In this document: piece after piece, positions 8,347-48,800 of the stretch
How positions within the stretch are numbered: the first letter of the stretch is position 1
How the letters are laid out: every line of letters starts with the position of its first letter
Source of the DNA: a virus
Reading direction: 5' to 3' (one strand)
IMG/VR virus record: IMGVR_UViG_3300021437_000011
Location: 1-64,000 of that record
Length of the DNA: 64,000 nt
Position numbers and translations under genes: made by a program
Notes under the pieces: generated by a model
The model's input: the letters and a program-made list of their open reading frames with translations, nothing else
The model's database searches: none
Told to the model about the DNA's origin: nothing

Positions 8347-8874
8347 TCTGTAGTCTGTCGTCCCAAACTTGGCGAGATATTCTTCAAGTTTATGCTCCCT
8401 GCCCTCCCCTTGGGCAGGGAGCTCTACCCATCCCTTCCCAGACCATTCCGGTGGGATGAGGGCAATTCCACTCTTTGAATTATGGCGGACAACGCCAATG
8501 TATTCCTGCGCAAACATCGCCTCCAGATAATCCCGAAGCGCTCGATCTCGGTGGGCGTCGGGTCTCCTTGAATCGCACCAGATCTGAATAATCTTGATCG
8601 CCACGGTTGAATTGTCCGTCAGCGCCAAAGTCAAGAAATCCATGGTCAGATCTATGACGTAACCCGCCAAGTCAGGTCGCTTGAGCTCGGCCAGCTCGGG
8701 ATGGGCGAGCCATGCGCATTGCCATACTTGGCACCCTGGCGGGCGCCGATCATAAATAGCGCATCCCTTCCTGAACCGCTGATGGGGGCATTTCATATTA
8801 GCCTCACTTCCCAGCTCGACGATGGGCATGACACGACAGCACAATTGGCAAGGTCCGCATTTGCGCTCACTCAT
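8287..8874 (-). CDS. YkgJ-like Cys-cluster protein, 195 aa
   Basis: ATG 8874 overlaps the stop of the HTH gene (ATGA), so the pair is coupled. The N-terminus has the family signature CGPCQLCCRVMP, then CPHQRFRKGCAIYDRRPPGC and a further WQC, the conserved cysteines that chelate zinc or iron in the YkgJ/UPF0153 family. The remainder (about residues 85-195) is a variable domain. The molecular role of the family is not well established. Its coupling to an HTH repressor suggests a phage-encoded accessory or sensing function. Confidence 0.75.
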   Translation of the reverse strand: MSERKCGPCQLCCRVMPIVELGSEANMKCPHQRFRKGCAIYDRRPPGCQVWQCAWLAHPELAELKRPDLAGYVIDLTMDFLTLALTDNSTVAIKIIQIWCDSRRPDAHRDRALRDYLEAMFAQEYIGVVRHNSKSGIALIPPEWSGKGWVELPAQGEGREHKLEEYLAKFGTTDYRLGVVCGGNSNEKNNTFMRS

Positions 8875-9155
8875 TTTGGCATGGCCTTTTTCTTTCGCCA
8901 CAGTTCCCGACGACGCGCTAAGCGCTGACAGCGGCGCGCCTGTTTCAGGGTCTCCTCGAATTCCGGATAAACGATTTCCAGCAATTCTGGGATGTCATCA
9001 AGGATAGACATAATTCTATCCACAAGAGGCGGAACTGGAGCCTTTCCCAACTCCCAGTCGCCCACTGTTTGCCGCGACACTCCAGCCAAGTCGCCGAGGT
9101 CCGCCTGTTGCATTCCAAATTTTATTCTTATTTCCCGTAATTTATCGCCAGTCAT
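8871..9155 (-). CDS. HTH XRE-family repressor, 94 aa
   Basis: Residues about 4-60 form a classic Cro/CI-type helix-turn-helix (LREIRIKFGMQQADLGDLAG and VSRQTVGDWELGKAPVP), followed by a basic helical tail. ATG 9155 lies just left of the palindrome 9172-9194 and diverges from the promoter 9225-9253, so autoregulation and control of the rightward genes are likely. It is coupled to the YkgJ-like gene. Distinct from the second switch near 23.3 kb, so the genome carries at least two repressor systems. Confidence 0.85.
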   Translation of the reverse strand: MTGDKLREIRIKFGMQQADLGDLAGVSRQTVGDWELGKAPVPPLVDRIMSILDDIPELLEIVYPEFEETLKQARRCQRLARRRELWRKKKAMPK

Positions 9156-9171
9156 CGCCGCCCCTGTTTTT

Positions 9172-9194
9172 CGCGATCATATCGCATGATCGCG
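9172..9194. promoter_or_regulatory. Operator palindrome of the HTH repressor
   Basis: CGCGATCAT, spacer ATCGC, then ATGATCGCG: a perfect 9-bp inverted repeat with 5-base centre, 17 bases upstream of the repressor start and about 30 upstream of the divergent -35 box. Size and place fit a dimeric HTH operator. Confidence 0.7.
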
Positions 9195-9224
9195 TCAGGA
9201 TACAACCCACGCGCGACGTTTGTG

Positions 9225-9253
9225 TTGACGTCGGCTTTCCCGACATCTATAAT
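9225..9253 (+). promoter_or_regulatory. Strong sigma70-like promoter
   Basis: TTGACG (9225-9230), 17-base spacer, perfect TATAAT (9248-9253). The spacer contains GTCGG-CTTTC-CCGAC, a small inverted repeat that could be a further operator. It drives the leader peptide and the gene at 9364. The bases before the -35 (TGTG) match those of the early promoters near 1121, 2833 and 3806. Confidence 0.8.
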
Positions 9254-9308
9254 TACCATACCAATATGGGACTTGTATATTTTTTCTTTGGAAAAACAAG
9301 GAGTTGAT

Positions 9309-9386
9309 ATGGAAGACGAAAAAGAAAACGCCGTCACGAGACGGTCCAAGACGGGAGACCGCCATGGCCACACTCATCGTTGCTGA
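9309..9386 (+). CDS. 25-aa leader peptide overlapping next gene
   Basis: ATG 9309 has AAGGAG at the right distance, a better site than most genes here. It encodes a short polar peptide ending in HGHTHRC, stopping at 9386, 23 bases inside the next gene. Ribosomes on it would open the next start at 9364, so translational coupling or attenuation is likely. No family can be assigned. Confidence 0.5.
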   Translation: MEDEKENAVTRRSKTGDRHGHTHRC

Positions 9387-9832: not shown

Positions 9833-10933
9833 ATGAAAAGTTCCGAAGCGACAACAGCTTGGCGCGAAGCGCTGACAGCCGTGACGTCCTTGGCGTTCAT
9901 GACTCCATCCATGGCCATAAACGCCCTTCATCAGCTCAACACGCCAGGCCCTTTGGTCCCGGCCTACGCCTCAGCTTCAGCTAGCGTAATGTCCGTCCTC
10001 CTTGCGGCGGGAGCTCCATTTGTCATAAAACGCAAAACCGACGCCAGCATTCGCTTGGCGGCCGTCGCCGCATTCATCGTCTGCGCTGGATACAATCTGC
10101 AAACCGCCATCGGCGCGGCCAGCCTATCCAGAAGTTCTGGCGTTGGGACGAGAGAGGCGGAAGCGGCAAGAGCAAAACTTTTGGCCGGGCAGGTGGCGCA
10201 GGCGGAAACATCTCGCGCGGCGCTGGCCAGGGCCGTGGGCGAGGACACGACCGCGATGATCGAGGCGACGCTCAAGGCGATGCGTCAAGATGCGAAATGG
10301 TCTCGTTCTAAAAACGCCTCTGGCGAAGGATGCGAGGATGCGACAAAGGAAGACACCCGCGCGTTTTGCGCCGAATACGCCAAGAAGCTGGCCACGAAAA
10401 ATGCGGCCATGAAAATCGGCGAGCTGGACGTCCAGCTCGATGATCTCAAGAGGAAGCTCATCACCGCGACCAACGCTGCGACAAGCCAAGCCGCCGACCC
10501 GCAGGCGAGCAATGTCGTTCTTGTCCTGGAAATGATAGGCGTAAGCGCCGAGGCGGCGAAAGTCGGCGTCGGCCTCAATCTGTGGTTCGCGCTGACAATC
10601 GAGGTTTTGGCGGCGCTAGGTCCGGTTGTCCTTAGCGTCCTGTTCTCGGGAAGCGTGTCCAAGCCATCCACGCCGACAGAGGGAAAAGCAGAGACTCCCG
10701 CGCCTGCCCCAGAGGGAAAAGAGGAGAAGCCGGATACAACCAAGGGTTGTAAGCCTTCTGGACTGTCCATGGTCGGGGGGACTGACGTCACCGTGACGGC
10801 AATGGTCGCCGCCTCGTCAGCGCAAGAGGCAGCCGCCCGCTTGGGCGTATCGGAACGAACGATATGGCGGAGGATCGCTGAGGAAAAATCGAAAGCTGGC
10901 GGCAAGCCAAAGTCACGAGCATCTGCATCTTGA
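9833..10933 (+). CDS. Membrane protein with C-terminal HTH, 366 aa (copy 1)
   Basis: Start at ATG 9833 behind GGGAGG; the frame open from 9665 lacks a site. Residues about 12-95 contain three hydrophobic segments. Residues about 100-225 are a polar helical region with a Cys pair (CEDATKEDTRAFC) and a likely coiled coil (KIGELDVQLDDLKRKL). Another membrane segment follows (NLWFALTIEVLAALGPVVLS), then a Pro/Glu/Lys-rich linker and a C-terminal HTH (EAAARLGVSERTIWRRIAEE). This layout would anchor a DNA-binding domain to the inner membrane. The convergent protein at 11078-12394 has the same architecture. Function unknown; DNA tethering, partition or membrane-sensing regulation are possible. Confidence 0.75.
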   Translation: MKSSEATTAWREALTAVTSLAFMTPSMAINALHQLNTPGPLVPAYASASASVMSVLLAAGAPFVIKRKTDASIRLAAVAAFIVCAGYNLQTAIGAASLSRSSGVGTREAEAARAKLLAGQVAQAETSRAALARAVGEDTTAMIEATLKAMRQDAKWSRSKNASGEGCEDATKEDTRAFCAEYAKKLATKNAAMKIGELDVQLDDLKRKLITATNAATSQAADPQASNVVLVLEMIGVSAEAAKVGVGLNLWFALTIEVLAALGPVVLSVLFSGSVSKPSTPTEGKAETPAPAPEGKEEKPDTTKGCKPSGLSMVGGTDVTVTAMVAASSAQEAAARLGVSERTIWRRIAEEKSKAGGKPKSRASAS

Positions 10934-11016
10934 CGCAACCACGAAAAACGGCCCCAGCTCCCGCCAGGGCCGTGAAACATTCGAAGCATTTGCCGTGAGC
11001 ACATTGACATGAGCCT

Positions 11017-11045
11017 CGGCCGGAGTCAATCCGGCCGCCATTTTT
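11017..11045 (+). terminator. Intrinsic terminator after membrane-HTH copy 1
   Basis: CGGCCGGA, loop GTCAA, TCCGGCCG forms an 8-pair GC stem, followed after three bases by five T. It lies 84 bases after the stop of the gene at 9833. A second, weaker stem (ACGGCCC/GGGCCGT) lies at about 10948-10975. Confidence 0.7.
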
Positions 11046-11077
11046 GCCCCTCCATCTCTCCATTCCGCCGTCGCCTC

Positions 11078-12394
11078 TCACGCCCCCTTTTTGGGGCTGT
11101 CAGCGCTTTTGGCGGAATGGAGAGATGGAGTTTTGGCGGCCTTCTCCGCCGCTAGGCGTCGGTGGATTGTTCGCTCTGACACCCCTTTCAGCTTGGCGAT
11201 CTCCGCCACTGTCATGGACCCTGTCAGGGCTGTCACTGACATGTCACCCCCCCTGACAACTGTCAGTGACACGCGCCTGTCAGGGTTGCCGCCACGCGAC
11301 AACGGCGTGTCAGTGTCATCTGTCAGTGTGGCTGTTTTAACACTGACACTGTCACTGACACGCCTGCTAACCCTTTGATTTTTAGTGTCAGTACGTGTCA
11401 GTGTGGCTTTTTTAACACTGACAGGTGTCAGTGTCTCCCTGTCAGTGACACTGACATTTTGGCAGACCTGTCTGTCAGTGGCTGTCACCCTGTCATCTGA
11501 CATGTCACCCTGACACGTGTCAGTGTCAGTGTCAGGGTGACAGCCGTGGCTGTCAGTGTCAGATGTCAGTGTCAGGGCGCTGTCAGGGTGACAGCCATGT
11601 CCGCTTTTTTGTCCGCTTCCCGCGAACGTCAGGAGCAGGGTGGCGTCACGGAAGAAGCCCAAGAGGAGGACGCCTGACACCATAAACAAATCCGACCACG
11701 CCTCGACGCCAAGGCCAACCCGGCGCGCGAACCACCGGTTTCCCGCGACCGGGTCGGAAACCGAATCCGATGTTTCACGGGAGGCGTCACGCCTCATCTC
11801 AAGCCTGGCGTCCTCAGCCCCCTTGGCCTTGGCTAGCTCCACGCCCAGCTCCACATACCTGTCGCAATGCCGAGCCCGGAACGCCCAGTGCTCTCTATCC
11901 GTGCAATCCTTCGTCCATGCTCCTAGGGTTTTAGTGGAGCCATCAATGCCCTTGGCGTTCTGGTATGTCACCAGTTTAGAAAGTTCTACTGCACGCTCAG
12001 CTTGTATTTCGTCTGAGCCCTTAATGGTCTCGTCCCACGATTTCGCCGTTAGATTCTTGAGTTCAGAGAGTTTAGCTTTGCGGCGCGCGGCGGCGAGTTC
12101 CCGGTCATCAATGCGACGCTGGACTTGACTCGCCCAGAAGCCAATTTCCAGGGGGATGAGGTACGCCTCGCCCAGAATGCAGAAAAGGCAGCACACGCCG
12201 GCCAGCCATTTGGAGCCATTATCCCAATGCCTGTGGGCGGCCACCGAACCGATAGCCGACCCCACAACCGCCAGAACCGCCAGCCCGCAGGGGATTGCCC
12301 CCTGGGCGCCAACATAGTCCCAAACGATCGCCGCAGTCAGCGAGAGAGAGAACAACCAGAACGCAACGCCAGCGGACTTGCGTATGAAACTCAT
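11078..12394 (-). CDS. Membrane protein with C-terminal HTH, 438 aa (copy 2)
   Basis: ATG 12394 overlaps the FtsK-like stop (ATGA); the longer start at 12409 is less likely. Residues about 5-90 hold three hydrophobic segments. A polar helical region follows with a Cys pair (CTDREHWAFRARHC), then another membrane segment (WSDLFMVSGVLLLGFF). A low-complexity Asp/Thr/Ser/Val-rich linker of about 130 residues is encoded by the TGTCA repeats. The C-terminal HTH is EIAKLKGVSERTIHRRLAAE. It is a paralogue in layout of the convergent gene at 9833 and is translationally coupled to the motor gene. That makes a role in membrane-associated DNA handling plausible, though unproven. Confidence 0.75.
   Translation of the reverse strand: MSFIRKSAGVAFWLFSLSLTAAIVWDYVGAQGAIPCGLAVLAVVGSAIGSVAAHRHWDNGSKWLAGVCCLFCILGEAYLIPLEIGFWASQVQRRIDDRELAAARRKAKLSELKNLTAKSWDETIKGSDEIQAERAVELSKLVTYQNAKGIDGSTKTLGAWTKDCTDREHWAFRARHCDRYVELGVELAKAKGAEDARLEMRRDASRETSDSVSDPVAGNRWFARRVGLGVEAWSDLFMVSGVLLLGFFRDATLLLTFAGSGQKSGHGCHPDSALTLTSDTDSHGCHPDTDTDTCQGDMSDDRVTATDRQVCQNVSVTDRETLTPVSVKKATLTRTDTKNQRVSRRVSDSVSVKTATLTDDTDTPLSRGGNPDRRVSLTVVRGGDMSVTALTGSMTVAEIAKLKGVSERTIHRRLAAEKAAKTPSLHSAKSADSPKKGA
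11177..11600. repeat. Dense TGTCA/TGACA pentamer array inside gene
   Basis: Counting by eye, about 26 TGTCA and about 13 TGACA occur in roughly 420 bases, often as TGTCAGTGTCAG runs or facing pairs such as TGTCAGTGACA. The array encodes the low-complexity linker of membrane-HTH copy 2. Repeats of this density may be replication slippage or a multi-site protein-binding array. Confidence 0.85.
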
Positions 12395-14451
12395 GGCGGC
12401 ATCCTCCACATAGTCGAACCTCCGAAGGCGGTCTTTCCGTCAGTTTCCGCTCCAAGGCGCTTGAGGGCGCTTGTCAGGCTGCCTTCCGACCTGTAGCCGT
12501 TGTCACATGCGACCCGGAAAAGCTCTGACCGTGTCTTAGGCCCGCTGAAGAACGCCTCGCGTATAACATCGTCCAACGGGCGCTTAACGCTTCCCCTTGT
12601 CCCCAATCCATGCTTATCTGATTCGCCCACGGCTGACCCGTCATCATCACCCACATCCCCCATATCAACGTATTCTGGAGGGGGACTCGACGCGATCAGC
12701 GCATCAACGATCTCAAGAATTCCGTCGGAATCAATGAACGCGCTATGGCAACGCTGCACCCGCCCCGCCTTCTCCAGCAGCAAGAAATCCCCAGCCCCCA
12801 GGAGCTTTTCAGCGCCCCTGTTCCCCGACCCGAGCATGACCTCGCTGTCAACCCCGGAGGCCGCCAGAAAGGCTTGACGAGTTGAGAAGTTAGCCTTGAT
12901 GGCCCCCTTGATGATTTCGCGATCCGGACGCTGCATGGACAAGACTAGGTGGACGCCAGCGGCGCGCGCGATCTGAGCCAGCTTCTGCAGAGCGTTGGAG
13001 ATGTCAGCGGCGCGTTTGGCCTCAGGAGAATTCTTTTCTCCAACGACGGTCATAAGGTCGGCGACCTCGTCAATGAACGCGACGATAAACGGAATTTTTC
13101 GTAATTGGTCATCGACCCGCGCATTGTACTCAACGAGATTGCGGACCCCGCGAATCTTCTCAAACGCCTCATATCGCCGAGAGGTCTCCGCCAGCAGCCA
13201 CCTCAGGGCGATAGCCGCCTCTTCCTGTGTCGTGATCACTGGCGTCAACAGATGAGGTATCCCCGCATAGATTGTGAATTCCGCTTTTTTGGGATCAATG
13301 AGCAGCAAGCGGCACTGCTCAGGAGTCCGCGAGCTGATCAGGGAAACGATATCCGTATTCACGCCCACCGATTTCCCTGACCCAGTCGTCCCCGCAACCA
13401 GCTTATGGATCAGCGCCGCCTGGTCTTTGATAACTGGTTCTCCCAGGGGATCTACGCCCATCGCCATGGGAAGATGCCCGGAAAAATTCATAAATTTCTC
13501 ATGTTTGAGGATGGCGCTCAGCAACACCAACTGGCGAACGGCGTTGGGAATTTCAATCGACAGGCCGGCAGACTTGGGCGTTTTGACGATACGTATGGAC
13601 TCTTCGCCCAAACGCAGCTCAATATCGTCCTCTAGCCTCAGGACGTCCCCTATGCGGACGCCTCGGTCTGGAACAAAAACATAGGTGGTGACGACTGGGC
13701 CAACACTGACTCCGGAGATGCGGCCGAGCACTCGCAAATGAGCGAACTCCTGAATGATCCTGGCGGATTTTTCCAAATCCTCAGCCATGGGATGCGCCTC
13801 GACATCGATCACTTGGGAGCCTGGCGCGAGCAAGGCGCGCGACTGCGACGCGACCGGCTTATACGGAGGCGCGCGAAAGGCGATGCGCCCCATGCATCCG
13901 GCGTGGTAATCCAGAGGGTACAGGTCGGGAGCGACAGGGATGCAGCGGTTTATGGGGAGCGCTGAGAATGAGCCCTTGCAACACCCAGCCGCAAATATTC
14001 CAGATTGCCGTTGGGCGTCGGCGGCGCTGACAGGCTCTGACAACCGCCAGACGGCTATGGCCCGTCCAGATAGGCTCCAGTAGGCGAGGTGCGGGGGCCT
14101 GGATTGATTGCCCAAAAACCCGCTCAGACCTCTGGCGTGCGCCGCAACGACGCACATGCCGGTAATGTCCTGGTCTGTTGGCTCTCGCGCGAGAGGTTCT
14201 TTCACGTCGCCAAGGCACACCCACACCTCGGCGCCGCGATGATAGGCGGCCAATATCCATCGTTCGGCGAGAGCGCGGCGGCTCTCGCCGTAAAATGTCC
14301 GCCATTCCCAAGAGGCGTGGGAGGAGCCGAAATGACAAGCCCCGAGAACCCAGTGCGGGTTCTCGGGGATCAGCCTGTCAATGAAATCGCATGACATGCG
14401 CGCTGAAGAGCTGATCTTGTCCCTGAGCTTAACTTTCGGTGAATTTTCCAT
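12391..14451 (-). CDS. FtsK/SpoIIIE-type DNA translocase, 686 aa
   Basis: Residues about 225-300 resemble the FtsK alpha domain (GPVVTTYVFVPDRGVRIGDV). The motor domain has Walker A GTTGSGKS near residue 353 and Walker B IVAFIDEVADLM near 455, plus an FtsK-like ILKHEKF..SGHLPMAMGVD segment. The last ~65 residues form a gamma-like winged helix (SELFRVACDNGYRSEGSLTS). Unlike cellular FtsK there is no N-terminal membrane domain. The first ~200 residues are soluble and include SGRAIAVWRLSEPVSAAD, reminiscent of an archaeo-eukaryotic primase-type region without its catalytic residues (inference). The start has GGAG 13 bases upstream. It is coupled to membrane-HTH copy 2, which might supply the missing membrane anchor. 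Confidence 0.85.
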   Translation of the reverse strand: MENSPKVKLRDKISSSARMSCDFIDRLIPENPHWVLGACHFGSSHASWEWRTFYGESRRALAERWILAAYHRGAEVWVCLGDVKEPLAREPTDQDITGMCVVAAHARGLSGFLGNQSRPPHLAYWSLSGRAIAVWRLSEPVSAADAQRQSGIFAAGCCKGSFSALPINRCIPVAPDLYPLDYHAGCMGRIAFRAPPYKPVASQSRALLAPGSQVIDVEAHPMAEDLEKSARIIQEFAHLRVLGRISGVSVGPVVTTYVFVPDRGVRIGDVLRLEDDIELRLGEESIRIVKTPKSAGLSIEIPNAVRQLVLLSAILKHEKFMNFSGHLPMAMGVDPLGEPVIKDQAALIHKLVAGTTGSGKSVGVNTDIVSLISSRTPEQCRLLLIDPKKAEFTIYAGIPHLLTPVITTQEEAAIALRWLLAETSRRYEAFEKIRGVRNLVEYNARVDDQLRKIPFIVAFIDEVADLMTVVGEKNSPEAKRAADISNALQKLAQIARAAGVHLVLSMQRPDREIIKGAIKANFSTRQAFLAASGVDSEVMLGSGNRGAEKLLGAGDFLLLEKAGRVQRCHSAFIDSDGILEIVDALIASSPPPEYVDMGDVGDDDGSAVGESDKHGLGTRGSVKRPLDDVIREAFFSGPKTRSELFRVACDNGYRSEGSLTSALKRLGAETDGKTAFGGSTMWRMPP

Positions 14452-14987: not shown

Positions 14988-15434
14988 CTAATACTTCCAT
15001 TTGTTAACGTAAAATACGATGTTGGTGCGGACTTCGTCTTCCAGCATCCGCAGAGCGCGCATTGCTTTCTTTTCCATGGGGGTGTCTGGCTCAACAGCCA
15101 AAGTAGCCAAGTTATCGAATGCTTCTTTTATTTCGTCCTGCATTGTTTTTTTTGCATCATCCTTGAATAGAACCTTATAATTCTTCGTTTTGTCCCTGAG
15201 CTCATCAACAACAAAACCAAGATGAGTTGAGAGCCTTACTTCAAATATGGATATTTCCTCAAGAAACAACTCATCCATAACTATATTGTGCCTGCTAATT
15301 CGCTCCTGCATGTTGTTAAATGCAATTTTTATTATCTCCCCAATCCGGTTTCCCGCGCTGAGAGGCACCCTTATGCCTCCCGCTTTTCTGACCTCTGCTT
15401 CCGCCTTTCGGTTGCGTCCTCCCCAGAAACTCAT
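14988..15434 (-). CDS. Helical coiled-coil protein, 148 aa
   Basis: ATG 15434 shares its A with the stop of the SprT/vWA gene, so the two are coupled. After a basic N-terminus (MSFWGGRNRKAEAEVRKAGG), residues about 25-145 are almost entirely alpha-helical and charged, with heptad-like spacing, and resemble a coiled-coil bundle. There is no membrane segment. Its place between the vWA protein and the FtsK-type motor suggests a scaffold or bridging partner; that is inference from context. Confidence 0.6.
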   Translation of the reverse strand: MSFWGGRNRKAEAEVRKAGGIRVPLSAGNRIGEIIKIAFNNMQERISRHNIVMDELFLEEISIFEVRLSTHLGFVVDELRDKTKNYKVLFKDDAKKTMQDEIKEAFDNLATLAVEPDTPMEKKAMRALRMLEDEVRTNIVFYVNKWKY

Positions 15435-17140
15435 CAACTTTCCCTTTTTACTGGAACCAACTCCCTACGCGTCGAAGACCCCCAAACAGAGTTTCCTTGC
15501 GCTATTGGAGCCCCTGGAGACGGGAGAGCTCCAACGGACTCTTGCGATCGGTTCGGGAGGGACATTAACCCTCTCCCCGCCATCAGCGCCGTTGTGCGGG
15601 CGACGGCGGCGGGATCTAGCGAGGTTAACGTCATGCGCTTGACTCTGCGGCCGTGGAGCTCGGCGGAGCGCTGGGCGCTTTCTTCGAGCTGGCCAACAAA
15701 CCCACGGGAGCTCTGCCTTGACAGCTCCGCCCCGGCTCCCTCAATCCAGCCGTCGTTTTGCTGGCTGGTGAGCAATCTCTGCCCCCGGTCAACCTCAAGC
15801 TGAGCGGACACGACATCGAGCGCCTCATTCGCATGATGGTAAATCTGATGCGCGAAATCATTAGTCGTCCTTAGGAACTTGACCTCTTCTTGAAGCTCGC
15901 CGACTTGGTGGGCGGTGTCGGCGACCGTTGTAGCGATGTTGAGGACATGCCTCTGGTTTTTGATAACCTCTCCAGTATGAGCGAGGACTCGTTTCCGCTC
16001 ATCTTCCCAATTCCGGATAGGTCTGGGCGCAACGCTAAATGGCATTGATTCTGCTCCAATCTCGTTACGGATCGCGTTGACTAAGTCGGCTTCTCCGGAG
16101 ACGACATGCGCCTTTCCCACCCCTCTGGCGAGCTTGGCCATGAGCTCTATCGCCTTCCTGTCGCCGACAGCGCTGATAAGATAGGTTGATATCGGGCAAG
16201 TGGTTAAACCCCTTGCTCTGAATATTTCGGTTTGGCTTTCTTCTTCGGGGGAGCCATCGGAAAAAATATGGATATGCAAGTCATTCCCGCCGATATTCGC
16301 CGCCTGATTAAAGCAAGGGGAAAATTTTGTTCCAGAAACAAATCCTGGAGTGTCGTAAAAACTGCTATCCAATACTAAATCAGATGGAGTATCGAATTTT
16401 TTAATGTTTTGCGTATATCCATACAGACTATATTTATCCCTTAGATTTCTTACGAAATCATTAAGAGCCAGTTGCTGAACTTCGAACTTTATCCGTGAGT
16501 CTTCAGGCGAAATCGCATCCGCCATGCTGTTGGAGCAATCCGCGAATATGATGTGATGCCCGTCGGCGGCTCCTGGTCCAAAAATGCGCACAGAACCAGC
16601 TCCGGAGCTTTTCCTAGCCCCGGAAAACGCGCCGCGAGAGGACCACGTTCCTTGGTCAGCGGAGCCGTTCTTTTTCCCTGCCGCAGGGCTCGTCAATGGC
16701 GGCTGGACGTCGTCTCCCATAAAAATCTGAGCTAAAATCTCGTGATACGCGTCCCAAAACAATCCGCCCCGCTCTATGTTTTCGCGGGTGGAGCCAGGAG
16801 GGACGGGCAAGCCGATGGCCGCCATCTCGGCGCGCCACTCTGGCCCATGGCCATTGAAGCTCTGCGAGACCGCAAGCCCGTGCTTTACGAAGACGCGCAA
16901 ATGCGCCAGCTCATGAGCAATCGTCGCAATCGTGTCGATAAAATCACGAAAGAGAGTGTCTCCCGCCATCCGCAGTTGAGCAGATTTACGGTGAGATTTT
17001 GGGTAGTCCAAGGACCCTTGATTTTTTTCGTGATCGTCAATGAACATTTCAATTGGCGGCCATTTGACGCTCGGCCACAGCCTGCCCATCAGATAATCGC
17101 ATGCTCTGCGGAACTTAGGGGGAATCGGTTTATCAGCCAT
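15434..17140 (-). CDS. SprT-like metalloprotease fused to vWA domain, 568 aa
   Basis: Start at ATG 17140 with GGGAG 8 bases upstream. Residues about 10-130 carry HELAH (H76, E77, H80) and a third ligand in NGHGPEW (H98), the pattern of SprT/Spartan zinc proteases. SprT relatives of the Spartan type cut proteins crosslinked to DNA. Residues about 193-370 form a von Willebrand A domain with the MIDAS motif D201-x-S203-x-S205 and a later FSDGSPEE. Residues about 400-470 are probably coiled coil; the tail is low-complexity. I know no common protein with this fusion. It leads an operon with an FtsK-type motor and may be a protease regulated or recruited by its vWA domain. Confidence 0.8.
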   Translation of the reverse strand: MADKPIPPKFRRACDYLMGRLWPSVKWPPIEMFIDDHEKNQGSLDYPKSHRKSAQLRMAGDTLFRDFIDTIATIAHELAHLRVFVKHGLAVSQSFNGHGPEWRAEMAAIGLPVPPGSTRENIERGGLFWDAYHEILAQIFMGDDVQPPLTSPAAGKKNGSADQGTWSSRGAFSGARKSSGAGSVRIFGPGAADGHHIIFADCSNSMADAISPEDSRIKFEVQQLALNDFVRNLRDKYSLYGYTQNIKKFDTPSDLVLDSSFYDTPGFVSGTKFSPCFNQAANIGGNDLHIHIFSDGSPEEESQTEIFRARGLTTCPISTYLISAVGDRKAIELMAKLARGVGKAHVVSGEADLVNAIRNEIGAESMPFSVAPRPIRNWEDERKRVLAHTGEVIKNQRHVLNIATTVADTAHQVGELQEEVKFLRTTNDFAHQIYHHANEALDVVSAQLEVDRGQRLLTSQQNDGWIEGAGAELSRQSSRGFVGQLEESAQRSAELHGRRVKRMTLTSLDPAAVARTTALMAGRGLMSLPNRSQESVGALPSPGAPIAQGNSVWGSSTRRELVPVKRES

Positions 17141-17294
17141 CGGCGGTCTCCCATGAGGCAAGGAGACCCGTCGCCAGGAAAGGCGCAGCGCTTTTTACGC
17201 TGAAAACAGGCTTTCTGCTGTTGCCACCCTTGGCGAATCGAGGGTATGGCTTTGGATAGCCTCGCATACGGGTCCGTTCCGTTGTGTGGTCAGA

Positions 17295-18583: not shown

Positions 18584-19996
18584 CTACGCCGCCTGGTGAT
18601 AGGCGTAGTCCGCCTTGTTAGGATCGTATTTCATTTGGACTGCTCCTGGCTTGCCCATCGTTTCCTGGTCTTTGCATTTGGCTATGTTCACCTCAATAAT
18701 ATCAAGCGGCTGTTTCTGGTCATTGTAGAACCTATCAAGTATTATGCCATGTTCTGCCTTGTTATGCCAGTTCGCTGATCCATTTATGGTGTAAAGAGTT
18801 ACTTGTTCTCCCTTTTTAACCTTTGTGGGGTGGGCGACAAGAAACAACATCAACAGCAATCTTCTCATGTTAAACTTCAAAAGCTCAAGAGCTCTCTCTG
18901 TGTACTGAGTTTCCGTTAGTTTACCCATATCGTGCGAAATGCAATTCCATGGATCGACTACAAACCCCTGACAATTGTGATGGAATACAGCGGACTCCAT
19001 CTCTTCTACAATTCTTTCCAGAGTAGGGGATTCATCTTGGCCAAGCAAGGAAATCATGAAATGATCGTCAACCCACGCTTCAGCTTCTTCTTGAACTTCA
19101 CGAGTCGGATGAGGGTAAGCCCGCATCCGGAATCGCTTCATGTCCCGGCGAAGGCGATGAGCCGCATCCTCTGGCGTCCAAAACGCCGTGCGCAGGCCGT
19201 ATTGCTCGGCGAGGTGATAGCATAGCGACCGAGTGAACACGCCTTTGCCGTGCCCTGGAACGCCCGTCACGACAACCAGCTCAGGACGGGCCAGCAAAAG
19301 ATGCGGGTCAAGGCATTTCCAGCCGCTGGAGTACGTTTGCGTGAACGCTGGGGGGGCGATCGCCCCTGGCTTGAGCAGATGTCCGGGGCGAATCGGCTTG
19401 GCTTCCTCAAGGACCTGGCGAACTCTTTCCGGGCCATAGCGAAGCAAAACATCGTTCAGGTCCTTGCACCCTTCGGGATACGTGACAAACCAACAGCGGC
19501 CAGGACCAATCCTGATGGCCAACTCGTCTCGCATGATCTGGCCGTTGGCGTCGTCGTCCATCGCTAGAATTATTTTCGAGAATTGATCAAGTTCAGGAAT
19601 GAGCTTCAGATCTACCCCCCACAAAAACGAAAATGCTGTGTCGTCAGCGATAAGCTTCCCTGGCTCAGTCCTGGAGCTGCGTGACCCATTTGGCACAGAA
19701 ACAGCATATCCCCCCCACCCAGTAATCGCGGTAAGCGTATCAAACTCTCCTTCCGCCATCACGAGAGGAAGCACGGGGCGGCACGGCAAATCTTCGATCG
19801 TGTCCAGCAACCATAACTGTTTTGGAATCCCCGACGGCAGGACCACGAATTTCTTGTCCCACGTGCGCAGCTTGCGATACCGCAAACGGCCTTTGCTCCG
19901 GTATTCGAACACAAACCCATCCCGCCGAAGATACGCCCCGTATTTCGCAGCCAGCTCCGGACACAGCCTCCGCTTCTCGAATGGATTTATTTCCAT
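18584..19996 (-). CDS. TOPRIM primase-helicase, T7 gp4/Twinkle type, 470 aa
   Basis: ATG 19996 (MEINPFEKRR) has GGGAG five bases upstream; ATG 20029 in frame is an alternative. Residues about 30-200 contain a TOPRIM fold (VMAEGEFDTLTAITGW; IILAMDDDANGQ; CKDLNDVL). Residues about 225-460 are a DnaB-like RecA motor with Walker A TGVPGHGKG and the VDPWN segment. It lacks the zinc-binding domain that starts full-length relatives. That domain lies in the overlapping frame just upstream (19740-20252), a +1 shift away. It would synthesise primers and unwind DNA at the phage fork. Confidence 0.85.
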   Translation of the reverse strand: MEINPFEKRRLCPELAAKYGAYLRRDGFVFEYRSKGRLRYRKLRTWDKKFVVLPSGIPKQLWLLDTIEDLPCRPVLPLVMAEGEFDTLTAITGWGGYAVSVPNGSRSSRTEPGKLIADDTAFSFLWGVDLKLIPELDQFSKIILAMDDDANGQIMRDELAIRIGPGRCWFVTYPEGCKDLNDVLLRYGPERVRQVLEEAKPIRPGHLLKPGAIAPPAFTQTYSSGWKCLDPHLLLARPELVVVTGVPGHGKGVFTRSLCYHLAEQYGLRTAFWTPEDAAHRLRRDMKRFRMRAYPHPTREVQEEAEAWVDDHFMISLLGQDESPTLERIVEEMESAVFHHNCQGFVVDPWNCISHDMGKLTETQYTERALELLKFNMRRLLLMLFLVAHPTKVKKGEQVTLYTINGSANWHNKAEHGIILDRFYNDQKQPLDIIEVNIAKCKDQETMGKPGAVQMKYDPNKADYAYHQAA

Positions 19997-20252
19997 AGTT
20001 CTCCCGATGGCTGTTATATTTCCGTGCATATTTCTTTACCCCATCGTAAAAAGCATAGCCGTGATCTGGACAATGACAGCATGACCACTTTATTCCCAGG
20101 CTGTCAATAGTAACTCTGAGGACTTTTTTCTTTCTGTTTACAGGTTTTCTATTGCGTGAACACTTAGGACATTTGGTGTACCGCACTCCAATGCTGTAAT
20201 TACGAAGGTATATTTTGTTTTCCTTGCACAAATCTTCCGCTGACTTCTTCAT
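19740..20252 (-). CDS. Primase zinc-binding domain, separate overlapping frame
   Basis: ATG 20252 overlaps the initiator stop. Residues about 26-66 carry CPKCSR and CCHCPDHGYAFY, the four-Cys zinc domain with which T7-type primases recognise template. After about residue 80 the frame reads in an alternative phase over the primase-helicase gene, so the last ~90 residues are unlikely to be conserved. Either this is a natural split with overlapping genes, a programmed +1 shift near 20000-20040, or a mutation or assembly error. Confidence 0.65.
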   Translation of the reverse strand: MKKSAEDLCKENKIYLRNYSIGVRYTKCPKCSRNRKPVNRKKKVLRVTIDSLGIKWSCCHCPDHGYAFYDGVKKYARKYNSHRENYGNKSIREAEAVSGAGCEIRGVSSAGWVCVRIPEQRPFAVSQAAHVGQEIRGPAVGDSKTVMVAGHDRRFAVPPRASSRDGGRRV

Positions 20253-21598
20253 GGGCGATACCTGTACATGCCGGGGGCGACCTCTGTAAGGCCATCCGCC
20301 AAGGGTTTTCTGAGGGCGTCAACCCTCGCGGAGCGCTCGGCTTTCGCCTTGGCGTCGCTCTGCAGATACACGAACTGCCGTCGGACCACCTGCATGACCT
20401 CGATGGCCGTCATGTACGACCTGACGTTGACCGCTGAGGCCAGTAAGCCGCCAAGGACGTCCACTAGGGGGAATGTGGTCTCAAGCTCGCTCCTGAAGCC
20501 TCCTGCGGCCTCCAGGCGGCCATCTGGCGTGATCCAGACCTCTCGCTGCGCCTTGGCTTCCGCCTGCTTCAGGAACGCGTCCTGACGCGCCTTGGGCGTG
20601 GACCAGCACTCCGGGATCTCTGGGGCGGCCTGGATAATGGCTGGAGGCTCGGCGGGAGCCGCTGCGGCGGGGACCGCTCCGGCCAGACTGGCCAAAACCG
20701 CAGATGCAACTTTTTCTACGTAGCCAGGAAATTTTTCAACCTTGGGGGGCAGAGCCGGTTCTGGGGTTCGCGCGTGGAGGATGTCCTCTGACTCTCCCCC
20801 TGTTTTTTTATACAGATTCTCTTTACAGATTAAGCGGACATTTTTGTCCGGTCTTAATGGACAAAAATGTCCGGTCTTAATGCCAAAATCAGGCTCGGAA
20901 GACGGGCCAGAAACCCCTTGAGCGGACATTTCTGTCCGGTCTTGACCTGTATTATATCCGGGTAAATCCTCTTGAACGGACATTTCTGTCCGGTCTTGAT
21001 GTTTTCCATAACTGCCTTGAGCGGACATTTCTGTCCGGTCTTGACCTGTATTATATCCGGGTAAATCCTCTTGAACGGACATCTCCGTCCGATATTGAGC
21101 GGTGGGAATCGCTGTTTCAGCCACTAAGCGAGGAGGTAAATTTGCCATAATCTCGGCTCCAATCTGGGCCAGAACCGGACCAGGAATGGTCATGGTTTTC
21201 TCCGCGCCGCCCCGCCGCCGCCTCTTCACGGACATCCAGCCCGCGGCTTCGAGCTCCTTGTTTGATCTCCTGACGGTTTTCTCGTTGCACCGAGTCAGGG
21301 CGGCGATTGTGTCGTTGCCTACATTCGTCCGGAGGTGCGTCCCGTTTGTGTACGAAAGGTGGAAACACAGAACTCTGAAAGCGTTGTCGCTGATGTCAGA
21401 AACCAGCGCGGCGTTTATGAGCCGGGTGCGAGCGCACACATTATGGCTTGTGGCGTGAGATTTCAGCCAGTTGAGGCGTAGGGAGTCAGCCGTCTGATTA
21501 ACAGCGTCTTCGACCTCGGAGACAGTAATGTCTGGAAAGGATGGTCGCTGTTCAATGGCGGGAAACTCGATTACGCTCGTCTCAAACGTTGGGTACAT
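20249..21598 (-). CDS. Replication initiator, lambda O-like, 449 aa
   Basis: Starts at ATG 21598. Residues about 50-160 form a winged-helix domain (DNAFRVLCFHLSYTNGTHLR; NDTIAALTRCNEKTVRRSNK; ELEAAGWMSVKRRRR). Residues about 165-260 are repeats such as RTEMSVQEDLPGYNTGQD, encoded by the iterons. The C-terminal ~170 residues are Ala/Pro-rich then helical and may contact the helicase. The plan (DNA-binding head, origin within the gene, helicase-loading tail) is that of phage lambda O, though I infer homology of plan rather than sequence. It overlaps the primase zinc-domain gene by 4 bases. Confidence 0.75.
   Translation of the reverse strand: MYPTFETSVIEFPAIEQRPSFPDITVSEVEDAVNQTADSLRLNWLKSHATSHNVCARTRLINAALVSDISDNAFRVLCFHLSYTNGTHLRTNVGNDTIAALTRCNEKTVRRSNKELEAAGWMSVKRRRRGGAEKTMTIPGPVLAQIGAEIMANLPPRLVAETAIPTAQYRTEMSVQEDLPGYNTGQDRTEMSAQGSYGKHQDRTEMSVQEDLPGYNTGQDRTEMSAQGVSGPSSEPDFGIKTGHFCPLRPDKNVRLICKENLYKKTGGESEDILHARTPEPALPPKVEKFPGYVEKVASAVLASLAGAVPAAAAPAEPPAIIQAAPEIPECWSTPKARQDAFLKQAEAKAQREVWITPDGRLEAAGGFRSELETTFPLVDVLGGLLASAVNVRSYMTAIEVMQVVRRQFVYLQSDAKAKAERSARVDALRKPLADGLTEVAPGMYRYRP
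20805..21091. other. Probable replication origin with six iterons
   Basis: CGGACA-N4-TGTCCG palindromes (first half TGGACA in the second copy, second half CGTCCG in the last) lie at 20835, 20858, 20923, 20977, 21022 and 21076. Each is followed by a GTCTTRA-like tail, diverged in the last. Spacings of 54 and 99 bases keep the coding frame, and about 68 bases are repeated exactly at 20916 and 21015. An AT-rich stretch at 20805-20835 borders the array, as expected for an unwinding element. Confidence 0.8.
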
Positions 21599-44220: not shown

Positions 44221-45855
44221 ATGAGAGTCCCAAAAACACTGGCAAAATTTGCGCATTTGGCTCCTGAAGTGCAGGCAGTTTCGGTGGATGCGCCCGTGGG
44301 CGGCTGGGATGCGATCAGCCCGCTGGCGAAGATGGACCCGCGGTATGCGGTTACTCTCGACAACTGGGTGCCAAGGACCGCCTATATAGAGTTGCGCAAG
44401 GGATACCAGACGTGGTGTCAGGGTTTGGCCACAACGCCTGTGGAAACCCTCATGACCTATCGGCCAGAAGGCGCTCCAGAGGCCATGTTCGCGGCGTGCA
44501 ATGGCGCAATCTGGAATGTTTCTGGGCAAGGGAGCCCCGTGCGCGTCGTGACGGGACTGAGCTCCAACAGATGGCAATATATCAATTTCACGCCTGCTGG
44601 CGGCGCAAATTACCTCTATGCCGTCAATGGCATAGATACCCCTCTCTTGTGGAATGGCGCAATCTGGACCAACCCGGTTATCACCGGGGTGACGGCGGCG
44701 ACGCTGCGGGGCATTTATGTGCACAAGCGCCGGATCTGGTTTGTTCAAAACCAAGCCACGAGCGTTTGGTATTTGGGGACCGACGCGATCCAGGGAGCGG
44801 CGACGCAGCTCGACCTTGGCGCGCTGATGAGCAAGGGCGGCTATCTTGTCGGCGTTGGCACGTGGACGATTGACGGCGGCCTGGGGCCTGACGATTACGC
44901 CGTCTTCGCCTCAAGCCGCGGCGAGCTCATCATTTATAAGGGAACCGATCCGTCCAGCGCCACCGCCTGGTCTCTTGTGGGCGTTTTCGATTTTCCTCCG
45001 GCGTTGGGTTATAGGTGTTTTTATCGGATGGGGTCAGATCTGTGGATGATCACAACTCAGGGCGTCATCCCCGTGTCGCAAGGTCTCCCCTTCGACCCGG
45101 CCGGCTCGCGCTCGGCCGCGATCACGAGTCGTATCCAAAACGCAATGCTCCAATCTGGCGCGGCTGGGCAATATCTCTTTGGCTGGCAACTCATCAGCTA
45201 TCCAAACGAAGCTTTGGCCCTGTTGAATGTGCCTATTCTGGAGAATGTCAGCCAGCAACAGTATGTAACAAATCTTCTTACTGGGGCATGGTGTCGGTTT
45301 ACCGGGTGGAATGCGAATACGTTTGAAATATTCAATGATAAACTGTACTTTGGAGACAATACCGGTAATGTAAATCTTGCCTATAGCGGATCTACAGACC
45401 TCATAACACCCATCAATGCGGACCTGAAGTGCGCGTTTAACTATTTTGGAGACCCAAGCCGACTCAAGCGCATGAGCATGGCGGAGCCGCTCATGGTGAC
45501 GAGCGGAGCAATTACGCCTACCCTGGCTGTTGATGTGGATTTTTCGGACACAAGCCCCAGCGCTCCGATCAATAACATTGTTCCTCAAGGGTCTGCTTAC
45601 GACGCATCTGTTTATGACACCGGGATTTACGCTGCTGGAAACGTTTCTCTTGTGAGCTGGCTCTCGACTGAAGCACAGGGACGCGCTCTTGCGCTTCGAA
45701 TGAAAGTAAATCTTCTTCCTCTCATAGTTTCAAACCAGTCTATATTTGATACTGGCGTGTTCGATGCTTTAATCTTCGATGGGCTTAGTTCATCTGACGT
45801 GACTCTTCAGCTTAACGCCTTCAACGCTTTAGTGGAGTTTGGAGCCAATGTATAA
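44221..45855 (+). CDS. Tail protein, packaged-DNA-stabilisation type, 544 aa
   Basis: ATG 44221. Throughout, short beta segments with Trp/Tyr/Gly motifs suggest a propeller (FAACNGAIWNVSGQGSPVRV; YLYAVNGIDTPLLWNGAIWT; YVHKRRIWFVQNQATSVWYL; TDPSSATAWSLVGVFDFPPA). The C-terminal part is beta-rich (YDASVYDTGIYAAGNVSLVS). Position and pattern fit podovirus tail hub proteins such as P22 gp10 or T7 gp12-like, which close the channel after packaging. Family exactness uncertain. Confidence 0.65.
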   Translation: MRVPKTLAKFAHLAPEVQAVSVDAPVGGWDAISPLAKMDPRYAVTLDNWVPRTAYIELRKGYQTWCQGLATTPVETLMTYRPEGAPEAMFAACNGAIWNVSGQGSPVRVVTGLSSNRWQYINFTPAGGANYLYAVNGIDTPLLWNGAIWTNPVITGVTAATLRGIYVHKRRIWFVQNQATSVWYLGTDAIQGAATQLDLGALMSKGGYLVGVGTWTIDGGLGPDDYAVFASSRGELIIYKGTDPSSATAWSLVGVFDFPPALGYRCFYRMGSDLWMITTQGVIPVSQGLPFDPAGSRSAAITSRIQNAMLQSGAAGQYLFGWQLISYPNEALALLNVPILENVSQQQYVTNLLTGAWCRFTGWNANTFEIFNDKLYFGDNTGNVNLAYSGSTDLITPINADLKCAFNYFGDPSRLKRMSMAEPLMVTSGAITPTLAVDVDFSDTSPSAPINNIVPQGSAYDASVYDTGIYAAGNVSLVSWLSTEAQGRALALRMKVNLLPLIVSNQSIFDTGVFDALIFDGLSSSDVTLQLNAFNALVEFGANV

Positions 45856-48800
45856 TGGCGCCCCGCTCTCATCTCAATTTGGCGAATTCGACCCAAATAA
45901 CGCGGACATTGTCAACGCGTTGAACGGGTCTCAGCCGATGTTCAGTGGCCAAAATCCTCAGACGCAAGCGCTGATGAGCGCGATCTCCGGGCAGCTCCCG
46001 CAACCAGGGCGAGACACGGGCGGATGGTCGACTCTTGACGCGATGTCGGGATATGGGGATACGGAGCCGACGCAAGCGCCGCTGGCGCGTCGGCCGTGGG
46101 GCATGCTCACGCCAGAGCAGGGGCGCGTTGAAGTCGCTGGGGCGTTGCCCGGATACGCCAGAACCGCAGTCGCCCGCGAAGTGGAGGCGAAAGAGGCTCG
46201 GGCTCGGCCCGCCGAGGCTCCCGCGCTCTCGTATATGGGCATGCCCCTGATCAGCGCCCAGGAAGCCAAGGACGCCGCAGAACGGGAGCTTGCGGCGGCG
46301 CAGGCGAAGAAGGCCCACGCTGAGGCGCAGCTCGCTGGAGAAGCCGCCTTGCCGACGACGACGCCGCTCCGGAATGCGGCGGAGAATGCTTTCCAGGCTG
46401 CTGGGGCAAGCTACGCCGCTGTTCCAAAATTCGCCGGATACATTGGGGGATGGCTCGCCAACGAAGCTGGCTCCGAGGTCCCCCCTACGGACAACGCTGT
46501 CTTCCACTTGGGCGACGCGGCCGACAAATGGTCCAAGGCGGCTTTTCCTGGAGACCCGGAAAGAGCTGACGAATTCGGGACCAAGGCCGCACACCTGACC
46601 GGATTCCTCGCGACTCTCTACGGAGCTGGGGGCGTGAAGGCGATGACCGAGGGCGGCCCCGAGCTGGCGGCCAAGATCGGGACCGCAGTCACAAAGGGGT
46701 CTCAGGCGGCGCTTGCCGTGGGGACTGGCGGCATGGGCCAGTTTGAGGCGGCCACGGCGGCGATGGAGGCTGGCGAGGGGCGGCATCCGATGCCTGGGGT
46801 CACGATCACGCCGCAGGGCCTGCCGGTAAGCGAGCGGGACCGGGCGTTGGCGACGCTGCTCGGCGCGGGTGTCGGGCTCACTAGCCTCATTCCCATGGCG
46901 TCGGCGACAGCCACCGCTGGCGAGCGCGAGATCGGCGCGGTCATGGCGAAGGCGCTGGAAGGATCTGGCGTCAATGCAGGCCAGATGGCGGCGTTCAATG
47001 TGTTGAACAACGCGATAGCGCGAGAGATTTATGACCCAGAACGGTCTCTCGCACAGGGGATGAATGAAGACGTTGCGCTTGGGGCGCTTGCTGGCGGAGT
47101 TGCTCATGGGCTAGCCGCCGCTACTGGACCAAAACGGCTGTCGACGCCAGAGGAAATCCAGGCGTTTATTGATGCGGCTCGGCGGCATGACACAGACCCA
47201 GCGAAGGCCGCCTACTGGCAGAATATGCGCCGATGGGCTGACGACACGCTTCTTCTTCCCGCGCCAAACGCGGGAGCTCCAGGAGCCGCTCCGCCTACGC
47301 CGATCCCCGCGCCAGTTGCGCCAAACGCGCCTAATGTGGCTCCGGCCGAAGAAGCTCCACGGGAGGTCGAAACTTCGGCTGCGCCAGAACCTGTAAAACT
47401 TGGCGAGGCAGGGCCATATGCGCTTCGCGATGCAACGAATTGGAGGGAGGAAGCCCATGGGGACAGACCACCAGCAGGTCGCGGAGAGAGCGCTCAAAAT
47501 ATCGGAGCAAGCGAGGAAGTTGGGCCACCACGAGACAGAGCAGTACTACCGAGCGAAGGCGGAAAGGCACTTGGCCCGCGCCCAGTGGTTGGAACGGAGA
47601 CGTTTGGCTACCGCGACAAAGACGGCTCCCCAGTCGTAGGCGCGATCAATAATGAAAAACCAGCAACGGACTATAGGGGCCGACTGGTTTTTCGTGCTTA
47701 CCCAGAAGGGACGACCATACAGCGCAACGAAAGTCCGGCGCGCAAGCTTGGCGAGCCCCTTGCCAAAGTCACCTTGAACCAACACCCCGACGGTTCGTGG
47801 GAAGTCGGGATGATGGAGACACATCCCGACCAAGGAGGCCGCCACCTCACCGGCAACATGCTCAACGCCATTGAAGATCGCCTTGGGCAGAAGCTCAAAG
47901 CCCCTGGCACGTTCTGGCCTGATGGATACCGCCTCTGGAGCAAGCGCGATCCTGAAGCCGTGCAACACCATCAGGAAGTAGATGGAGAGCATCTTAGCCC
48001 TGCGACGATCAAACGCCGCATCGACAAAAATCAGGAGGATATGACCGCCGCCGATCCCATCAGGGATTGGGAATACATCTCCGACCTGCAGAAAGAAAAC
48101 AAACGCCTGACAGCGGCGTTTGAGCGCGTTCCAGAGCATGCGCGGACGCCAGAGGCGCTAGCGGGGCAATTTGCCCTGCGCGGCGTCCATGCGACAGAAG
48201 CTGATTTCGATCGCTTCGATCCAGAGAAGTCGGGCTCGCGCTTCAATCTCAACTTTTGGGGGAATGGCGTCTACATGACGCCGCTGGAGCATGCGCAAGA
48301 GTTGGGAAAGGCTGGAGAGGCGGGAACTTACTATGGAGAAGCCGCGCCTGGGCCTGGCGCTAAGCATTATCTGCTGTCACTCGACGCCAAGAAGCCGTTT
48401 GTCATTGATCACGCCTTAGATGAATTGGGCGATGTCCATTCGGCGAAGGCTGACTGGGGGTCGCTCAAGCCGCACGGATGGGAGCACGAGATGCCCCCCG
48501 TGATGGCCTGGCGAGACCCAAAGGCCCTGGAGAGCGCCCGCGCCGCCATTCCCGATGCGGCCCGTAGGGACGCGCGGGAGGCAGAGCAAGCCCGCGACGC
48601 AGCCATAGACCAGATGTGGGCGCTAGATCCGAGACATGGGACGCCCCCGGAAGATATCGCGGAGGCTAAGCAAAAGGTCGACGACCTTAGCCAAAAGGCG
48701 TTTGAGGCGCGGAGGAAAGCGCATCCGCCCGCAGTTCTTGCCGAGAAATTCACTCAAGCGTTGAAGTCCGCTGGCTATGACTCGGTTATCGTTAAGCAAA

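What the first reader, a model, noticed from the sequence alone, without database searches (positions are those of the whole stretch)
9833..12394. Two convergent membrane proteins with C-terminal helix-turn-helix domains
Both proteins have several N-terminal membrane segments, a polar helical part with a Cys pair about 12-14 residues apart, one more membrane segment, a low-complexity linker and an HTH ending in GVSERTIxRRxAxEK. They are tail to tail, and one is coupled to an FtsK-type motor. Membrane-anchored DNA-binding pairs of this design in a phage are, to my knowledge, undescribed. They could tether phage DNA to the membrane, serve partition, or sense envelope state.
Basis: partly seen in the sequence, partly recalled or inferred. 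Interest (0 to 1): 0.75.

Follow-up and report, generated by a model that had tools for sequence, protein, structure and literature searches.

The report
Membrane DNA tethers beside phage FtsK
A phage of proteobacteria carries two membrane proteins with DNA-binding tails, a DNA-pumping motor and a cluster of 38 copies of a five-letter DNA word inside one of the genes; together they look like a machine that holds or moves the phage genome at the cell membrane, not previously described for such phages as far as I could find.

Summary
A (9833-10933 +) and B (11078-12394 -) each have three N-terminal membrane helices, a helical stalk with a Cys pair, a fourth membrane helix, a disordered linker and a three-helix HTH. 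B overlaps an FtsK-type motor gene by 4 nt. The pair is not isolated: a profile built without A and B finds both (E 3e-38 and 5e-8). The family is spread through Rhizobiales, where members usually end in a winged helix and some sit beside a conjugative coupling protein (9 of 70 loci, 7 of them with a relaxase) or a ParA ATPase (8 within 2 kb). Three other phage contigs carry FtsK with one to three such proteins; one has relatives of both A and B. The linker codons of B hold 38 TGTCA/TGACA words in 384 bp, in all codon phases and both orientations; recoding gives 4.1. This is a DNA signal. Weaker repeat clusters lie 3' of FtsK in the other three. Best reading: a membrane-tethered DNA-handling module that works like the Streptomyces TraB-clt-SpdB2 machinery but is not a member of it. 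DNA binding, partner contact and purpose (segregation, transfer or membrane replication) are inferred. An envelope-sensing regulator remains a serious rival.

The parts
9833..10933 (+). Protein A: 3 TM, stalk with C167/C179, DPQ motif, TM4, linker, C-terminal HTH
   Evidence: ORF; family match E down to 1e-20; independent profile E 2.7e-38; model
10793..10897 (+). HTH of A (residues 321-355)
   Evidence: model; weak HTH Pfam hits; 50% identical to HTH of B
11078..12394 (-). Protein B: same design, long linker; start overlaps FtsK stop
   Evidence: ORF; independent profile E 5e-8; model
11132..11236 (-). HTH of B (residues 387-421)
   Evidence: model, pLDDT 92-94
11210..11593 (.). Array of 38 TGTCA/TGACA words, nearly all inside the linker codons of B; candidate clt- or centromere-like site
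   Evidence: next densest 300 bp of the 92-kb record holds 3; synonymous recoding mean 4.1, max 11 of 1000; three codon phases, both orientations
12391..14451 (-). FtsK/SpoIIIE-type motor, soluble (no N-terminal TM), own N-terminal domain of about 220 aa
   Evidence: PF01580 6e-44, PF17854 3e-14; PDB 2iut/2iuu; hydropathy max 1.17; N-terminal domain shared with L285 and L290, weakly with L298
9225..9253 (+). Promoter-like site upstream of A, opposite the repressor-like gene
   Evidence: TTGACG-17-TATAAT, 11 of 12; consensus match only
10948..10973 (-). Terminator-like hairpin, end of the FtsK-B operon
11017..11037 (+). Terminator-like hairpin, end of the A operon
8871..9155 (-). HTH_3 (Cro/CI type) regulator, divergent from the A operon (context)
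   Evidence: PF01381 8e-10

Best explanation
A, B, the FtsK-type motor and the TGTCA array form one DNA-handling module. A and B sit in the inner membrane (N-in, three TM helices, a periplasmic stalk probably closed by a disulfide, a fourth TM helix) and hold a cytoplasmic HTH on a flexible leash. Because their HTHs are near-copies while the rest has diverged, they most likely recognise the same DNA, and the 38-copy TGTCA array inside gene B is the best candidate. Bound to it, they bring the phage genome to the membrane and serve as platform for the soluble FtsK motor, which translocates the double-stranded genome. The purpose is most likely keeping or moving the phage genome as an extrachromosomal replicon (segregation at division, or cell-to-cell spread as with Streptomyces TraB). 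Shown: architecture (by prediction), family membership, gene coupling, array and its DNA-level nature, motor homology, recurrence of FtsK with such proteins. Inferred: topology, disulfide, which protein binds the array, contact with FtsK, and the purpose.
For: Translational overlap of B with FtsK. Three other phage contigs (L285, L290, L298) encode FtsK with these membrane proteins; in G1076 both A (phmmer 1.2e-11) and B (1.2e-4) have relatives. Relatives in Rhizobiales lie beside a coupling protein (9 of 70), of these 7 with relaxase plus NikA-like, or a ParA (6 within 220 bp, 2 at 1.8 kb): all DNA-movement machines. The phage FtsKs lack a membrane anchor while several actinobacterial ones have one. 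The array is DNA-level. Repeat clusters also lie in the 1.5 kb 3' of FtsK in L285, L290, L298, each in about the 2-3% tail of 1952 control windows; the L285 cluster also exceeds synonymous recoding. The clt of Streptomyces plasmid pWTY27 begins in traA and holds four 7-bp repeats (PMC3583192); SpdB2 is a membrane protein that binds dsDNA and contacts TraB, and SpdA2 binds a site inside its own gene and affects plasmid stability (PMC4170104). No tyrosine integrase was found in G000, G1076 or G1077.
Against: No binding data. No ParA in this record, and no conjugation pore was sought systematically. Most family members in the Rhizobiales sample do not lie next to a motor gene. The 3' region was picked after seeing the data, so overstates the other arrays, and each is weak alone. 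The array might serve another protein, such as the FtsK C-terminal domain. Nearest MCP relatives (80-85%) showed no such module (partly incomplete records), so it is accessory.
Confidence: 0.45

Rival explanations
1. Membrane-bound one-component regulators: the periplasmic disulfide stalk senses envelope state (redox, wall stress, superinfection) and the cytoplasmic HTH switches phage genes, as ToxR/CadC-type regulators do.
For: Predicted periplasmic stalk with a Cys pair found in 67 of 69 relatives; HTH; A lies behind a promoter-like site opposite a CI-type regulator.
Against: The array lies at the 3' end of a gene between convergent operons, not at a promoter; no TGTCA word at 9156-9310; FtsK/coupling-protein/ParA neighbours are unexplained.
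Confidence: 0.2
2. Membrane attachment of replicating phage DNA: A and B tether the genome for replication or packaging and FtsK untangles concatemers; no transfer or segregation.
For: Replication genes follow on the same strand (primase/helicase 18584-20029, initiator-like 20249-21598); FtsK in a rhizobial podovirus was suggested to act on concatemers (PMC13299392).
Against: The array is 9 kb from the iteron-like repeats; relatives in bacterial genomes sit with conjugation or partition genes.
Confidence: 0.22
3. The array is a by-product of expansion of a Thr/Ser/Asp-rich disordered linker, and A/B and FtsK are neighbours by chance.
For: Linker is low-complexity; linkers evolve fast.
Against: 38 copies against 4.1 on recoding, all phases, both orientations, irregular spacing 5-30; FtsK plus such proteins recurs in three other phages.
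Confidence: 0.08

Closest known systems
Streptomyces TraB / clt (TRS repeats) / SpdB2
   Same: FtsK-type dsDNA motor, short-repeat cis locus (in pWTY27 overlapping and adjoining the tra gene), integral membrane protein that binds DNA and contacts the motor (PMC4170104, PMC3583192)
   Different: Membrane proteins unrelated in sequence (no DUF2637 hit), motor without membrane anchor and below the TraB model cut-off, proteobacterial phage group, phage genome
DUF2637 proteins beside FtsK in actinobacterial-type viral contigs (L287, L308)
   Same: N-terminal TM helices, linker, C-terminal HTH; near FtsK; in L308 a repeat cluster sits in the linker codons (15 vs 1.8 on recoding)
   Different: Different membrane domain, no Cys-pair stalk seen
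Rhizobiales loci with T4CP + relaxase + this membrane family
   Same: Same membrane/stalk domain (E to 1e-20), next to a HerA/FtsK-superfamily coupling protein
   Different: C-terminal winged helix (Pox_D5-like in relatives) instead of the short HTH; conjugation genes of the relaxase type
TcpA/TcpK of C. perfringens pCW3
   Same: FtsK-like coupling protein (PDB 6o1w matches the phage motor, 2.6e-17) with a separate wHTH protein that binds oriT (PMC6137059)
   Different: TcpK family differs; full conjugation apparatus present
ToxR/CadC membrane regulators (own knowledge)
   Same: Cytoplasmic HTH plus periplasmic domain with disulfide
   Different: Single TM, N-terminal HTH, no motor neighbour

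Membership tests
FtsK/SpoIIIE motor (12391-14451) | FtsK_SpoIIIE ATPase and alpha domains | tested here: met
   PF01580 5.9e-44, PF17854 2.8e-14
FtsK/SpoIIIE motor (12391-14451) | C-terminal gamma domain | tested here: not met
   no FtsK_gamma hit at E<=1
FtsK/SpoIIIE motor (12391-14451) | N-terminal membrane anchor | tested here: not met
   max hydropathy 1.17 in first 200 aa
Plasmid TraB (NF041214) | score above curated cut-off | tested here: not met
   45 bits, cut-off 800
SpdB2/DUF2637 | PF10935 domain in A or B | tested here: not met
   no hit at E<=1; L287 neighbour of FtsK does hit, 1e-17
SpdB2/DUF2637 | dsDNA binding and contact with the motor | not testable with these tools
   needs biochemistry
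Unnamed Rhizobiales membrane/stalk family (profile A3) | match to a profile built without A and B | tested here: met
   A 2.7e-38, B 5e-8; next ORF of the record 0.27
Unnamed Rhizobiales membrane/stalk family (profile A3) | Cys pair, DP(Q), TM order | tested here: met
   pair in 67 of 69 relatives; B has DP without Q
Unnamed Rhizobiales membrane/stalk family (profile A3) | C-terminal Pox_D5-like winged helix (common, not universal) | tested here: not met
   A and B carry a short HTH instead
clt/centromere-like site | cluster of short repeats near the motor gene, cis-required for transfer or stability | tested here: inconclusive
   cluster shown; cis-requirement not testable
Phage-plasmid | no integrase, plasmid-type maintenance genes | tested here: inconclusive
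   no PF00589 match in G000, no ParA; record may be incomplete, serine recombinase not tested

The most novel reading that the evidence does not exclude
A Gram-negative phage encodes a TraB-like machine that moves its double-stranded genome across or along the membrane independently of virions (cell-to-cell spread or septal segregation), using paired membrane proteins whose own gene carries the docking array; the site-inside-the-tether-gene design evolved more than once.
Probability: 0.15. Interest if true: 0.9.

Novelty: new variant of a known kind. Interest (0 to 1): 0.64.

Why it matters
Phage FtsK-type motors are common but have no settled function. Here one comes with likely membrane anchors and a strong candidate DNA address, so its role becomes testable with a few knock-outs and binding assays. 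The same membrane family next to coupling proteins, ParA and FtsK suggests a general tether used by mobile elements that no family database searched here names.

Tried and rejected
B against phages and plasmids, and A against phages and plasmids, by tblastn: no hits. Pattern scans of IMG/VR with A, B or FtsK alone: nothing useful. Nearest MCP relatives showed no such module, nor did 32 genomes holding such prophages show A. Profile A3 in class-wide samples: 0 of 385 and 0 of 229; the same profile rings on known genomes, but only a few candidates per genome were scored in the samples, so I draw no distribution claim. PADLOC hits of FtsK are to the FtsK-like part of SspH, not a defence system. 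PDB fold search of A: no significant match; five unannotated phage models match. Protein-level origin of the array was tested and rejected. Operator role at the A promoter considered unlikely: no TGTCA word there. L298's 394-aa and L285's 341-aa proteins fit by architecture only; the profile gives 0.34 for the first and does not list the second.

Full report
What is there. The window is the first 64 kb of a 92,246-base virus record. It is a tailed phage: terminase, portal, major head protein, amidase and endolysin lie at 30-56 kb, and this structural part is shared with other phage contigs, while 1-29 kb and 67-92 kb are not shared with the nearest ones. In the accessory left part, A (9833-10933 +) and B (11078-12394 -) face each other, with terminator-like hairpins between them. 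B follows the FtsK-type gene 12391-14451 with an ATGA overlap.

Architecture. AlphaFold2 models made with relatives as alignment show in both proteins three N-terminal membrane helices, the third running on into a long stalk helix, a return helix, a fourth membrane helix, a disordered linker and a three-helix HTH. The short loop between TM2 and TM3 is positive and the TM1-TM2 loop is uncharged in both. By the positive-inside rule this puts the N-terminus and the HTH in the cytoplasm and the stalk with its Cys pair in the periplasm, where a disulfide would be expected (inference). The fold of A resembles no solved structure but five unannotated phage models.

Family. A has relatives in 46 of 398 genomes of one order-level sample drawn around a Xanthobacteraceae genome, i.e. 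Rhizobiales. They share the TM order, Cys pair and a DPQ motif; the pair is present in 67 of 69 relatives. A profile built without A and B scores A at 2.7e-38 and B at 5e-8, with the next ORF of the record at 0.27. Relatives mostly end in what looks like a winged helix; two were matched to Pox_D5/RFX models. In A and B that end is replaced by a short HTH, and these two HTHs are 50% identical over 42 residues although the stalks have diverged. The simplest reading is that both read the same DNA sequence.

Neighbours of relatives. Of 70 loci examined, 9 have a type IV coupling protein, 7 of these also a relaxase and a NikA-like protein; 6 have a ParA-type ATPase within 220 bp and 2 more at 1.8 kb. 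About a third are a chromosomal type beside other conserved genes, of unknown meaning; the rest are unassigned.

Same module in other phages. Using the FtsK motor as bait in IMG/VR gave three contigs with FtsK and such membrane proteins. L285/G1076: FtsK, an A relative just downstream (phmmer 1.2e-11), a B relative 8 kb further (1.2e-4), and a third protein of the same design ending 4 bp before the motor start. L290/G1077: FtsK, convergent A relative, ParA and a small protein that looks ribbon-helix-helix; this contig also has a homologue of the window phage's head protein (1.6e-63). L298/G1078: FtsK preceded by a protein of the same design (architecture only) plus a clear member elsewhere (3e-24). 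The motors share an N-terminal domain without a Pfam name, clear in L285 and L290 and weak in L298, and lack a membrane anchor, unlike several actinobacterial ones.

The array. TGTCA/TGACA occurs 38 times in 11210-11593; the next densest 300 bp of the record holds 3. Recoding the linker with the phage's codon usage gives 4.1 (max 11 in 1000). The words fall in all codon phases and both orientations with spacing 5-30. So the DNA is selected, not the peptide. In L285, L290 and L298 the 1.5 kb 3' of FtsK also hold repeat clusters (GACACC/GAGACA, GCGGGGT, TGAGACA), each in the 2-3% tail of 1952 control windows. That region was chosen after looking, so this is supporting only. In L285 the cluster is again in the linker codons of the A relative and exceeds recoding (10 vs 2.1; motif chosen after looking). 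Independently, an actinobacterial DUF2637-type membrane-HTH gene near FtsK (L308) holds a 15-copy cluster (1.8 on recoding); L311 and L288 look similar but stay nearly in one codon phase, so a protein cause is not excluded there.

Mechanism and comparison. Streptomyces TraB is an FtsK-type motor that assembles on repeats at clt; SpdB2 is a membrane protein that binds DNA and contacts TraB; SpdA2 binds a site inside its own gene and affects stability (PMC4170104); the clt of pWTY27 covers 16 bp of traA and its adjoining 159 bp (PMC3583192). The phage module has the same kinds of parts but fails the sequence tests for TraB (45 of 800 bits) and DUF2637. I therefore say it works like that system and is not a member. 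No tyrosine integrase was found in this record, which fits an extrachromosomal phage but does not prove it. Envelope-sensing regulation and replication tethering are the main rivals.

Noticed in passing
20916-21098: 54/99-bp iteron-like tandem repeats inside the replication-initiator-like gene 20249-21598, possibly the phage origin, as in lambda O.
   Followed up: no
12391-14451, first about 220 aa of the product: FtsK N-terminal domain (IAVWRL...P motif) shared with L285 and L290 and weakly with L298, no Pfam name.
   Followed up: partly
L308:9420-9591, L311:3194-3302, L288:4151-4917: Repeat clusters inside or beside membrane-HTH genes next to actinobacterial-type FtsK genes.
   Followed up: partly
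L218:6723-6892 and L263 near 5489: Six AAGTCTG repeats, several 22 bp apart, beside a family member and a ParA gene.
   Followed up: no
L003:4656-6077 (record 68656-70077, - strand): TnpB-type RNA-guided nuclease in the phage.
   Followed up: no
L003:12382-13503 (- strand): Protein with YadA-like membrane anchor in a phage.
   Followed up: no
15434-17161 (- strand): SprT-like metalloprotease domain with a long C-terminal extension, upstream on the FtsK strand.
   Followed up: no
45839-51445: 1868-aa protein without any PHROG match; a 1733-aa relative in G1077.
   Followed up: no
L211:8642-9706 and relatives: Divergent gene beside many chromosomal family members, with weak endolysin PHROG hits, hinting at a cell-wall link.
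   Followed up: no
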